Under the pieces are notes generated by a model that was given only the letters and a program-made list of their open reading frames with translations, had not been told where the DNA came from and ran no database searches. This document shows positions 7,692-30,807 of a stretch of DNA of 64,000 nt, in pieces. The position numbers were made by a program, and so were the translations under genes. Within the stretch, counting starts at the first letter, position 1, and the number at the start of each line of letters is the position of its first letter. The stretch comes from Gimesia chilikensis. Lineage in GTDB: Bacteria; Planctomycetota; Planctomycetia; Planctomycetales; Planctomycetaceae. The stretch is from assembly GCF_007744075.1 (NCBI RefSeq), contig NZ_CP036266.1:3333748-3397747 (forward strand). Reading direction: 5' to 3'.

Positions 7692-7765
7692 GCGCCCGTA
7701 GCTCAGCTGGATAGAGCAACGGACTTCTAATCCGTAGGTCGGTGGTTCGAATCCACCCGGGCGTG
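7692..7765 (+). tRNA. tRNA-Arg (anticodon TCT)
   Basis: 74 bases folding into a full cloverleaf. The acceptor is GCGCCCG paired with CGGGCGT (one G-U), and the D stem is GCTC/GAGC. The anticodon stem ACGGA/TCCGT closes the loop CTTCTAA, giving anticodon TCT at 7726-7728. The T arm is GGTGG-TTCGAAT-CCACC. CCA is not encoded after the discriminator G. It reads codon AGA. Its 3' half from the anticodon loop onward is repeated at 26856 and 30725, so this gene looks like the attachment site of integrated elements. Confidence 0.97.
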
Positions 7766-7770
7766 CATAT

Positions 7771-7805
7771 AAGCCCATAAGCGATTAATGCTTATGGGCT
7801 TTTTT
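7771..7805 (+). terminator. Rho-independent terminator of tRNA-Arg
   Basis: Perfect 12-bp stem AAGCCCATAAGC / GCTTATGGGCTT with a 7-base loop, running directly into a T tract. The same terminator, with two changes, follows the tRNA fragment at 26856, so it belongs to the duplicated attachment block. Confidence 0.92.
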
Positions 7806-8770
7806 GTTTTTTGGAAATGTACCTAAATGTGTGGTTTTCATTGTGTACCTGATTCGCTCGCTTCACTTGCAGCTAAACAGAGATTAGAAGGCTCATAGCT
7901 GTCTGTGCAAATGATGCTCTTTTCCTCTGTCCAGTTCACACTTCAAGTCACGAAAGTCATGCTGAAAACTTTTGTTGTGTGTGTGGATGACCATTAAAAG
8001 AGAATTCTGTATTGGAAGATCGAGGTCTTACCTTGGCCGATTGGGAACTTCCTGTCTGGCTAGAATGCAATTTTAAAGCATGCGTGATCTCAGGAATTTC
8101 CGTAATGAGGGATACAGTCTTCCTCACAGTCCCTTGTATCTGTCGACTAATTGGAAAATCGGGCAGCTCGATAAAAAACACAAAGACTCGAAACTACTTG
8201 AAAATGAGCATTCTATTGAAGGCGGAATATCTCTGGACAAAGTAGTGAGTATCTACCTCTTCTTTTCTTTTGTCGCGATGTTGTAAATACGTTAAGGGTT
8301 GTGCGAGGTTACAAGGGCCTTTCACCCCGTATATCTCCACACGTGTCGGGATAAATAACGAGTCGTAAGTTTCCTGGTCGCCATCCTCAATAACTCCCCG
8401 GGATCCTGTAATGAAATCACGGACGCGCCTGAGATAAACGATTTCGCGCCTCTTCGAATTGATCAGAGGCTAAAGCATGCCAGTCCCTCTCAGATATTTA
8501 AACCGCAATTTTCCGTTTTTCTGGTACTGACACACTTAACGTTTCGGGACTGGTAAGAACTTCCGTTTCTCGAACTCACCCCCGGTATTTCTTTGAAACT
8601 CTCAGTTCAGACACTCTGTTTTAATCTTAGAACTCAGAACAAACACTGTCCCAGCCTGTTGACCTGACAACTTCCGGTCAGTTACGATTCGTCTACGCGG
8701 CGAAATGGTCTCTCCAAAGTAGTGTCAGGCAGCTCCGCATCGTATCTCTTTTAGAGGAACGGGACTTAAC
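7806..8770. other. Gene-poor left end of the tRNA-bounded segment
   Basis: About 965 bases with no supportable gene. The sequence is more AT-rich than the flanking chromosome. The short frames near 8012-8286 have no ribosome site and read like noise. TGTACCT occurs twice just inside the boundary (7818 and 7844) and could be recombinase arm sites, but this is speculative. The last part is probably the long 5' leader of the cold-shock gene. Confidence 0.5.
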
Positions 8771-8968
8771 ATGGCTGAAGGCACAATCAAGGTTGTGATG
8801 CAGAAGGGCTTTGGATTTATCGACACTGGAACTGGTAATGACCTGTTCTTCCACTCGTCAAATCTCGAAGGAATATCATTCGACCAGCTCCAGACCGGAC
8901 AGCGGGTGTCGTACACCGAAGGACGTGGTCCCAAAGGACCGTGTGCTGAGAACGTGAGACCAATCTGA
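8771..8968 (+). CDS. Cold-shock-domain protein (CspA family)
   Basis: 65 residues, the normal length for a single cold-shock domain. RNP1 is GFGFI (residues 14-18) and RNP2 is LFFHSS (25-30). It should bind single-stranded RNA/DNA and act as an RNA chaperone in the cytoplasm. The start at 8771 has AGAGGAA upstream. The long, AT-rich upstream stretch would suit a temperature-controlled leader as in other csp genes, but I cannot show a specific element. It is the first gene inside the tRNA-bounded segment. Confidence 0.93.
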   Translation: MAEGTIKVVMQKGFGFIDTGTGNDLFFHSSNLEGISFDQLQTGQRVSYTEGRGPKGPCAENVRPI

Positions 8969-9152
8969 CGGAACTGAGAGAAACTTCCTTCAAATCACAG
9001 CAAAACAAACATGAGCGAACAGGGCCTTCATCTTGAATGTCCTGCTGAATCCAAGGTTAGCCCGGATTACGGAAATACTAGAGTAGAACAGACAGATAAT
9101 CGTTCTTGCCTGTCAGGCGGCTAACATCTTATGTATCGAAAGCCGCTCTACT

Positions 9153-30300: not shown

Positions 30301-30596
30301 CCAGACTGGAACAAACTGCTCACAAACCGCGGTTAGAGATCACAGCCAAGGTGGCTTCATTCAAGCTGGTGGAGGAATTACCTCGACATCCCTGGGTAGA
30401 GGGCTTGAGCCGATTTCACAGCAGAGAATATCCCTCAGATCGGATTATCGATAAAGGAAAGTATGCCATCATGGAAGTGAAACTGAAGTCCGCCCGACTG
30501 GTTGACCCTGCGACGGGGAAAACGGTTCTCCCCCTTGAATTAAAAGAGTATCGTGCAGTTGATCTGAAAGCATTGGATCAGCAAAACGAACAATAG
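27348..30596 (+). CDS. Large secreted protein with N-terminal SHD1 (SLA1 homology) domain
   Basis: 1082 residues from ATG 27348, with AGGAA 7 bases upstream; a second start at 27375 (MFKISIT, GAGGAA upstream) is nearly as good. A signal peptide (ISITCLLLLSFLTSQGSA) is followed by an SHD1-like domain at about 32-80 (RIWTSADGRQRVRAEFAGLKGDQVQLKITGG ... LPLTQFSQRDQKYI), a small beta domain common in planctomycete exported proteins. The remaining 1000 residues are soluble with no family I recognise; a coiled stretch lies near ASADLNQRVSSASQEVSRLRSEI. It is the only gene between tRNA copies 2 and 3. Confidence 0.85.
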   Translation: MQNQFTRNLMFKISITCLLLLSFLTSQGSAADRIWTSADGRQRVRAEFAGLKGDQVQLKITGGLIVSLPLTQFSQRDQKYIQRTASTDTPDQTPNSETKKMVVADQVDSVKTADTETNKQVAVASSGDMKRLANDDIGKASRLLGEKFNLMLVNGLPVIHQEHFLELENIGSATERHQRHQAAVQALARERQNFSKLLERVALGVDESWVEEFLPNFIANHYPRQVVESVLNFKYQTGGAVGIWKGDNEFERRAAQQKFEREYGESLSELAIKGPFRICFISKARLSPYDFTRKGLSVKALAHGGTPVVPGVEWKTTFPTLPSSGGFRRSLNVAGSPVAGTSFWKVGPDIVNRLPSRTKKSFIGGAVTERWAFIATVVTFRSAPLLEPADRQMPAIFGTVDSVELFADPTLRKPLHSFPLKRYPTAVLVGGVEAVSESSQAVIPLDEFAVAGLIARNQGLKLKDESWTRIWQQVSKKDQQAVLKTREKLNSYTDLNFSIPSMISTQRASADLNQRVSSASQEVSRLRSEIQGLMSPSRQPFFPPFAGTFGATWDQDRESISAAQRQQLSDWLAGRTEAAGDLYRLNFKVVLDPRTDEPRLEDMSLTQQQAELRAAGEQPSHLISLYENRAFDERGELELRGTETGLFQRAGQEYKPYQFLLNLGCDTKTLMRFLPEEAVKKALAERGDEIRIAVTLDVRVQQLRSLNTDTGKQGGYATVILDSLPIHISVGEKDKAPLYEGPLQMAALQKLAAHQPEKAIPVQSKENEKAFALSPQGMLPLIASVAPEFLEDPEQLDQLMVMRWRFENVPMFDVKPDQVRFFDKGSQTLPSRDVRAAKAEKFKAWVKRWTESVPDQFTMQFDDFRFQGLDKDRPSPALFSNSFIPWSGGGNVNDYGHMMYGLKHPDTIQPAMAAEKVQELLDLFAIAPRDLLMDQIYAVPDQEGRNFKAAFPNPQAIPGLAMDRPAEPIFPLLRFDKEIWPAENARLEQTAHKPRLEITAKVASFKLVEELPRHPWVEGLSRFHSREYPSDRIIDKGKYAIMEVKLKSARLVDPATGKTVLPLELKEYRAVDLKALDQQNEQ

Positions 30597-30724
30597 GCGG
30601 CCGTATGATGATGTCAGGGATTGAGTTTAGTTTGAAACCTGTCTGCCACTGTATGTAACAGGTACTGTCCCCTCGAATCATGACTCGTTCGACAGGTTAT
30701 CCTCAAACGCTGATCTGTCTTTAG

Positions 30725-30766
30725 TTCTGATCCGTAGATTAGTGGTTCGAATCCACCCGGGCGTGC
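30725..30766 (+). repeat. Copy 3 of tRNA-Arg 3' half (diverged attR-like)
   Basis: Matches 7725-7766 at 38 of 42 positions by eye, from the anticodon loop through the T arm to the acceptor end, and then diverges. No 5' half of a tRNA precedes it. It is more decayed than copy 2 and is followed by a different terminator, so it probably marks an older integration or the original chromosomal 3' end. Confidence 0.88.
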
Positions 30767-30774
30767 TTTTGATG

Positions 30775-30807
30775 GCGATTCACTGTAAAGGTGAATCGCT
30801 TTTTTTA
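30775..30807 (+). terminator. Rho-independent terminator after tRNA fragment 3
   Basis: Perfect 9-bp stem GCGATTCAC / GTGAATCGC, 7-base loop, then eight T. It begins 8 bases after the tRNA fragment, the expected place for a tRNA terminator. Confidence 0.92.

What the first reader, a model, noticed from the sequence alone, without database searches (positions are those of the whole stretch)
7692..30807. Three tandem tRNA-Arg 3' ends mark two stacked integrated segments
An intact tRNA-Arg(TCT) at 7692-7765 is followed by a 78/81 identical copy of its 3' half plus terminator at 26856-26936. A 38/42 copy of the 3' half lies at 30725-30766 with a different terminator. All three start in the anticodon loop, the usual crossover site of tyrosine recombinases. 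This splits the region into a 19 kb and a 3.8 kb segment and gives a relative age order (copy 3 older). I see no integrase between the copies, so it would be a decayed or trans-mobilised island.
Basis: partly seen in the sequence, partly recalled or inferred. Interest (0 to 1): 0.75.

Follow-up and report, generated by a model that had tools for sequence, protein, structure and literature searches.

The report
Stacked islands at a tRNA-Arg gene
Two pieces of mobile DNA were inserted one after the other into the end of the same transfer-RNA gene, each leaving a copy of that end behind; relatives show the site without them, other fillings of it, and the same 18-kilobase gene cargo beside a different transfer-RNA gene, so this is a well-resolved example of a known way in which bacterial genomes grow.

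Summary
Relative G001 has no insert at the site; G005 has a different 14.6 kb island there. Both show that the terminator behind copy 3 is the original one. The 3.9 kb segment is shared, with both flanking copies, by G009 and is the older layer; the 19 kb segment is younger. Its 18 kb cargo (cyclic-glucan synthase, FloA, MpsC, DACNV protein and others) lies beside tRNA-Lys(CTT) in G009. The segment's left end carries a repeat pair that recurs about 52 bp behind tRNA-Arg(TCT), tRNA-Lys(CTT) and tRNA-Lys(TTT) in this genus; where both ends of such elements are known, their integrase lies at the right end. In the window no integrase was detected and a right-end motif is missing, so the segments are best read as stranded remnants. 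Tandem accretion and integrase target switching are both known: a new member of a known kind. A side observation is more unusual: the associated integrase clade lacks the usual first catalytic arginine.

The parts
5924..7483 (+). left flank: ceramidase-like gene, found within about 4 kb upstream of tRNA-Arg(TCT) in 10 of 11 relatives whose tRNA locus was fetched in 10-20 kb stretches (not in G012)
   Evidence: Pfam PF04734; synteny
7692..7766 (+). tRNA-Arg(TCT), intact; its 3' half (from about 7724) was supplied by segment 1 (inferred)
   Evidence: ARAGORN; comparison with copies
7767..7806 (+). terminator of type B brought in by the element
7819..7850 (+). left-arm direct repeat pair GTACCT..26 bp..GTACCT, 52 bp beyond the tRNA
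   Evidence: G000:C1:3341566-3341597
7724..26855 (+). segment 1, 19.1 kb, younger; no integrase detected
8486..26589 (+). cargo stretch found beside tRNA-Lys(CTT) in G009 (93-97% nt), there without 10909-11853
9153..9848 (+). polyamine-aminopropyltransferase-like protein (weak)
   Evidence: NCBIfam, far below cut-off
9934..10578 (+). methyltransferase-like protein (weak)
   Evidence: NCBIfam, far below cut-off
10909..11853 (+). bestrophin-type channel
   Evidence: PF25539
13192..14109 (+). four-CBS-domain protein
   Evidence: PF00571
14169..14456 (+). BON-like protein (below cut-off)
   Evidence: PF04972
14453..14869 (+). MpsC-family protein
   Evidence: PF10057
14866..15909 (+). flotillin-like FloA
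   Evidence: PF12127
16194..17507 (+). DACNV sensor-domain protein
   Evidence: PF21751
17643..26519 (+). 2958-aa protein with GH94 and glucoamylase-like domains, read as a cyclic beta-glucan synthase (name from recall)
   Evidence: PF06165, PF17167, PF10091
26856..26936 (+). copy 2: tRNA-Arg 3' half plus type B terminator, junction between segments
26856..30724 (+). segment 2, 3.9 kb, older, shared with G009
   Evidence: 94.7% over 26856-40000
27273..30596 (+). 1107-aa SHD1-domain protein, the only long gene of segment 2
   Evidence: PF03983; distribution
30725..30766 (+). copy 3: displaced original 3' end of the tRNA
30767..30810 (+). native terminator of the tRNA, as in G001 and behind the distal copy of G005
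31460..36595 (+). right flank: ThuA/GDSL/DUF7133/plastocyanin/cytochrome c protein, next to the tRNA in G001

Best explanation
Two integrative elements accreted at tRNA-Arg(TCT). Each brought, within its attP, a tRNA 3' half plus a terminator. Crossover in the anticodon loop rebuilt the tRNA and pushed the previous 3' end to the far end of the insert. The 3.9 kb segment came first, in the ancestor of G000 and G009 (or was lost in G001 and G005). The 19 kb segment came later, in this lineage. Segment 1 belongs by its left arm to a genus-specific element family that sits at tRNA-Arg(TCT), tRNA-Lys(CTT) and tRNA-Lys(TTT) and whose integrase gene, where both ends are known, lies at the right end. 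In the window the integrase and the right-arm motif are gone, so both segments are most likely stranded. The cargo looks like an envelope or osmotic-stress set. Shown by comparison: the site, the order, the alternative fillings, the cargo beside another tRNA, the shared left arm. Inferred: which integrase acted, loss of mobility, and cargo function.
For: No insert in G001: left flank, tRNA and right-flank gene contiguous, 214 bp from tRNA to gene. G005: other 14.6 kb island with an integrase at the tRNA; from its distal copy on, 777 bases match window 30725-31500 at 98%. 7 of 17 genus genomes have two or more tRNA-Arg(TCT) 3' ends; in the 6 where order can be read, all extra ones lie downstream in tRNA orientation. 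G009: window 26856-40000 colinear at 94.7%, with copies 2 and 3, while another island lies before copy 2. G009 cargo beside tRNA-Lys(CTT). Left-arm pattern: 9 hits in 17 genus genomes against 1 for the reversed control, 9 of 9 behind a tRNA (7) or a tRNA-Lys 3' copy (2). Composition: segment 1 GC 0.497, skew 0.021; segment 2 0.511, 0.093; flanks 0.544, 0.105.
Against: G009's cargo beside tRNA-Lys has an integrase remnant of a different family (int-a), and the tRNA-Lys query found only one place in all of G009, so no displaced copy; how the cargo changed site is not shown. G008 holds a diverged DACNV-glucan synthase pair with no tRNA in the 40 kb fetched, so this cargo does not always sit at a tRNA. 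Segment 2 carries no intact arm repeat, so its element family is less sure. The link between left arm and integrase b rests on three elements (G008 Arg and G005 Lys on one contig each, G009 Arg across two contigs); other elements with the arm have no detected integrase b. The right-arm motif was picked by eye from sequences on which it was then scored; one of the six matches has 3 mismatches (reached by 65 of 300 shuffles), and the right end of segment 2 has a 2-mismatch match at another place, -97 (3 of 300 shuffles). Right- and left-flank trees do not resolve G000 with G009; only the tRNA-Lys flank tree does (98/99).
Confidence: 0.87

Rival explanations
1. Segment 1 was not delivered whole by one integrase: the cargo was put by ordinary recombination between the ends of an element already resident at tRNA-Arg, which would explain why the same cargo has different ends in G000 and G009.
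For: Homology between G000 and G009 stops near window 8486 and 26589, inside the att ends. G009 has int-a remains at the left, the window has the arm of the other family. A 188-bp piece of the right-flank DNA sits at the cargo's left border in G009.
Against: No resident element with the same ends and without the cargo was seen: the G009 island at this place has a visibly different left arm and other genes.
Confidence: 0.4
2. The segments are still mobile in trans, as cis-mobilisable or satellite-like elements waiting for a helper integrase.
For: The left-arm repeats of segment 1 are kept. Islands at this site in G010 and G002 also show no integrase in the searches run.
Against: The core-proximal motif at -27 found in 6 of 6 integrase-b elements is missing at both window right ends. 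The only integrase-b relative listed in this genome is about 30% identical. No relaxase or mobilisation gene among the proteins scanned.
Confidence: 0.1
3. The copies are decayed remains of an ancestral tandem array of tRNA-Arg genes.
For: Three copies in the same orientation.
Against: Copies 2 and 3 are 3' halves cut in the anticodon loop. G001 has one gene with contiguous flanks. Different DNA lies between copies in different species.
Confidence: 0.01

Closest known systems
Genomic islands in tRNA genes with tandem arrays (Islander, PMC4383910)
   Same: tRNA restored, displaced 3' fragment at the far end, anticodon-loop crossover, tandem copies
   Different: Islander's rule requires an integrase in each island (passages read); neither segment here has a detectable one, so I expect that rule to reject them
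CIME (cis-mobilizable element) and accretion (PMC5704250)
   Same: integration genes lost, att copies retained, later element integrated at the shared site (passages read)
   Different: right arms eroded; no conjugation gene or transfer seen
Integrase target-gene switching
   Same: one integrase family beside several tRNA genes; reported as frequent (PMC4383910, passage)
   Different: here left arms about 52 bp from the tRNA are conserved across three tRNA genes of one genus, and one cargo is seen beside two tRNA genes

Membership tests
tRNA-integrated genomic island | intact tRNA plus downstream same-orientation 3' fragment | tested here: met
tRNA-integrated genomic island | site without insert in a relative | tested here: met
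   G001
tRNA-integrated genomic island (Islander rule) | integrase gene within each island | tested here: not met
   none detected in either segment
CIME | no integration or transfer genes | tested here: met
   limited to the ORFs given
CIME | attL and attR retained | tested here: inconclusive
   core copies and left arm of segment 1 present, right-arm motif missing
CIME | mobilised in cis after accretion | not testable with these tools
   needs excision and transfer assays
integrase-b element family (named here) | left arm repeat pair about 52 bp behind the tRNA | tested here: met
   segment 1 yes, segment 2 no
integrase-b element family (named here) | integrase at the right end with motif at -27 | tested here: not met
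   segment 1 is at most a remnant

The most novel reading that the evidence does not exclude
A genus-specific family of integrative elements keeps one att arm design while changing the tRNA core, moving cargo among tRNA-Arg(TCT), tRNA-Lys(CTT) and tRNA-Lys(TTT). Its integrase is a tyrosine recombinase clade without the first catalytic arginine (Thr instead), which would mean a changed active site that still makes precise tRNA junctions.
Probability: 0.3. Interest if true: 0.6.

Novelty: new member of a known kind. Interest (0 to 1): 0.42.

Why it matters
It gives an insert-free and alternately filled set of sites in which the order of two insertions, the exchange of the terminator behind the tRNA, and the presence of one 18 kb cargo beside two different tRNA genes can be read directly. 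Two paper searches on islands in this group (titles and starts of abstracts seen) listed none that announces such a site, which is no proof of absence. Islands that lost their integrase escape tools that demand one, so such stacked remnants are probably under-counted (inference).

Tried and rejected
Decayed tandem tRNA genes: rejected by the site without insert. Integrase remnant in the window: tblastn with 7 integrases of relatives hit only the tRNA and its copies. Phage origin of the cargo: PHROGs gave one weak family of unknown function among 9 proteins. I first wrote in a note that the tRNA-Lys locus of this genome is empty. On checking, its shared flanks are 4.85 kb apart and the DNA behind the tRNA resembles what follows one distal copy in G005, so I claim only that the cargo is not there. 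G012 may hold a diverged cargo copy near this site (contig C28 carries it together with genes matching window 37-52 kb), but no ThuA gene was found on the stretch read, the 3' probe hit only the tRNA on another contig, and contigs end between, so it is not used. The arm pattern outside the genus: 2 hits in 97 genomes against 8 for the reversed control, with no tRNA in the two loci, so chance. A paper search on tyrosine recombinases lacking the catalytic arginine returned none with 5 of 6 terms; no proof of absence. The model of integrase b is of moderate confidence (mean pLDDT 68.5), with the stretch round the tyrosine under 50.

Full report
What is there. The window lies at 3,333,748-3,397,747 of an 8.29 Mb single-contig genome called G000. 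It holds one tRNA, tRNA-Arg(TCT), at 7692-7766. Copy 2 (26856-26936) matches 78 of 81 bases of the tRNA 3' half plus terminator; copy 3 (30725-30766) matches 38 of 42. In the whole genome the 33-base 3' probe (up to 3 mismatches) hits only these three places. The copies begin at tRNA positions 33 and 34, on the 5' side of the anticodon loop.

The site in relatives. In the genus, 14 of 17 genomes (own included) matched the 33-base probe, and 7 of 17 have two or more places: G000 3, G002 3, G008 3, G005 2, G009 2, G010 2, G013 2. A third copy in G009 exceeds the mismatch limit and was found by alignment. In G001 the ceramidase-like gene, the tRNA and the ThuA/cytochrome gene lie side by side, 214 bp between tRNA and gene. 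The terminator behind the G001 tRNA is the one behind copy 3 in the window and behind the distal copy of G005. From the G005 copy on, 777 bases match window 30725-31500 at 98%. So copy 3 is the original chromosomal 3' end. In G001 about 540 bp of the window (30817-31356) are missing between terminator and gene, a small difference that I did not follow.

Order of events. In G009 the stretch 26856-40000 of the window is colinear at 94.7%, with copies 2 and 3 and the SHD1 gene. Before copy 2, G009 has another island, read from the ends of two contigs and at least 26 kb long if these belong together, with other genes and a truncated integrase (358 aa, no catalytic-domain match) next to copy 2. Segment 2 is therefore older than the G000-G009 split, or was lost in G001 and G005, and segment 1 is later. 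The tRNA-Lys flank tree joins G000 with G009 (98/99). The right-flank tree joins G001 with G005 (98/98) but leaves G000 and G009 unresolved, and the left-flank tree resolves none of the four. Composition agrees: in 500-base blocks (81 flank, 38 segment 1, 7 segment 2) segment 1 differs from the flanks in GC (0.497 against 0.544) and GC skew (0.021 against 0.105; rank-sum p about 1e-8 and 1e-7), while segment 2 does not differ in skew (0.093, p 0.66) and differs slightly in GC (0.511, p 0.014). By eye the left arm of the G009 island differs clearly from that of segment 1, so I take the two as independent insertions at one site.

The cargo beside another tRNA. Window 8486-26589 recurs in G009 on contig C19 at 93-97% nucleotide identity, in the same order, without the bestrophin gene. 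It begins about 1 kb beyond tRNA-Lys(CTT), after a 143-aa integrase remnant that is 59% identical to the integrase at tRNA-Arg(TCT) in G005. The tRNA-Lys query found one place only in G009, so no displaced copy marks the far end. In G000 the tRNA-Lys locus lacks the cargo; its shared flanks are 4.85 kb apart. Diverged versions of the DACNV-glucan synthase part (about 76% nt) occur in G008, far from its tRNA-Arg site and with no tRNA in the 40 kb fetched, and in G012. A C-terminal remnant is in G001. Of 59 genomes searched with the glucan synthase (own included), 15 matched, 6 of them among the 17 of the genus.

Which integrases use these sites. Family a (G005 type): of 19 integrase loci scanned, 15 have a tRNA within the fetched flank: Arg(CCT) 6, Lys(CTT) 3, Lys(TTT) 2, Thr(CGT) 2, Arg(TCT) 1, Arg(TCG) 1; four have none. 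A tree of 17 of them (the decayed G002 copy and the G009 remnant left out) needs 7 changes for six labels, 'no tRNA' being one; the least possible is 5 and shuffled labels average 10.0. Targets are thus mostly kept within clades, with some switches; the program warns of two long branches. Family b (G008 type) is found at the right end, next to the displaced tRNA 3' copy. Six genes have such a copy: Arg(TCT) in G008 and G009, Lys(CTT) in G005 and twice in G012, Lys(TTT) in G012; the other loci showed none in their flanks. In a tree of seven rows the truncated G009 Arg(TCT) gene is sister to the G012 Lys(TTT) gene (96/94), and the two Arg(TCT) genes do not form one clade; the G008 row is long. 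A third type, 365 aa, sits at the distal copy in G013.

The arms. Behind the tRNA or its copy, a direct repeat pair GTAYCY about 26 bp apart begins 51-55 bp after the 3' end in 12 of 47 sequences read (11 distinct places), Arg and Lys alike; one more of the 47 has a pair at 116. Single-base shuffles gave 33 in 9,400. A stricter pattern scanned over 17 whole genus genomes gave 9 hits (reversed control 1): behind tRNA-Arg(TCT) in G000 and G009, tRNA-Lys(CTT) in G008 and G010, tRNA-Lys(TTT) in G010, G012 and G014, and behind displaced tRNA-Lys(CTT) copies in G004 and G012. Outside the genus it gave 2 hits in 97 genomes against 8 for the control. Segment 1 has this arm at 7819-7850; segment 2 does not. 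At the right ends, the motif TAGYTRGAAAAC lies at exactly -27 in 6 of 6 family-b elements (0, 1, 3, 1, 0 and 1 mismatches) and at -27 in none of 10 other right ends, including both of the window; the right end of segment 2 has a 2-mismatch match at -97 instead. The motif was taken from some of these same sequences, so the count describes them and is not an independent test. The link of left arm and integrase b rests on G008 and G005 (both ends on one contig) and G009 (two contigs).

Mechanism. The likeliest course is integration by family-b-type enzymes at the anticodon loop, accretion of a second element at the rebuilt tRNA, and loss of the integrase-bearing right end in both segments. The restored tRNA would owe its 3' half and its terminator to the last element. 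That the window segments are now immobile is inferred from the missing integrase and right arm. How the cargo came to have different ends beside two tRNA genes is open: integrase-mediated transfer by elements of two specificities, or recombination that placed the cargo inside resident ends (see rivals).

Cargo function (inference). Bestrophin channel, four-CBS protein, BON-like, MpsC, FloA, DACNV sensor and a 2958-aa glucan-synthase-like protein suggest envelope or osmotic-stress functions. Segment 2 carries one long gene, an SHD1 protein, found in G009 (91%), G016 (55%) and G008 (54%, inside its own tRNA-Arg island), with two weak partial matches in G010 and G006, of 17 genomes.

Known or new. 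Islander (PMC4383910; passages read) describes the same signature, lists 125 tandems of two or more, and states that integrase targets have switched frequently. The CIME and accretion model is in PMC5704250 (passages read). The finding is a new, well-ordered member of that kind. The one unusual side result is that family b and its distant relatives, 9 of 9 aligned, have Thr where XerA (4a8e) has an arginine in box I, while the model of one member folds as a tyrosine recombinase (best Z 15.2, rmsd 6.9, 246 aligned, 4a8e; mean pLDDT 68.5). The role of that arginine is recalled, not tested here.

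Noticed in passing
L148, L147, L154, L158, L150, L156, L152, L153, L162 (alignment A1): An integrase clade with Thr in place of the first catalytic arginine in 9 of 9 rows and Lys or Arg at the second, with the Tyr kept; 5 of the 9 lie beside a tRNA 3' copy, the other 4 do not.
   Followed up: partly
tRNA-Lys(CTT) loci of G001, G003, G004, G005, G008, G012, G014, G016: tRNA-Lys(CTT) is a second insertion hotspot of the genus: further short matches to its 3' half lie in these 8 of 17 genomes.
   Followed up: partly
L062:6422-7852: The G005 integrase open frame runs on the opposite strand through the tRNA-Arg gene, so excision would alter its C-terminus.
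   Followed up: no
L054:13948-18450: In G008 a cyanophycinase-like gene, an asparaginase-like gene and a cyanophycin-synthetase-like gene (names from recall of the sequences) precede the DACNV-glucan synthase pair, beside transposase-like genes.
   Followed up: no
G013:C1:3339467-3387061: In G013 the restored tRNA and the displaced copy differ at two bases that, by my reading, pair in the T stem (G-C against A-T), so the island may have changed the tRNA sequence.
   Followed up: no
L056:14291-14478: A 188-bp stretch at the left border of the cargo in G009 matches DNA of the right flank of the tRNA-Lys locus in G000, G001 and G005.
   Followed up: no
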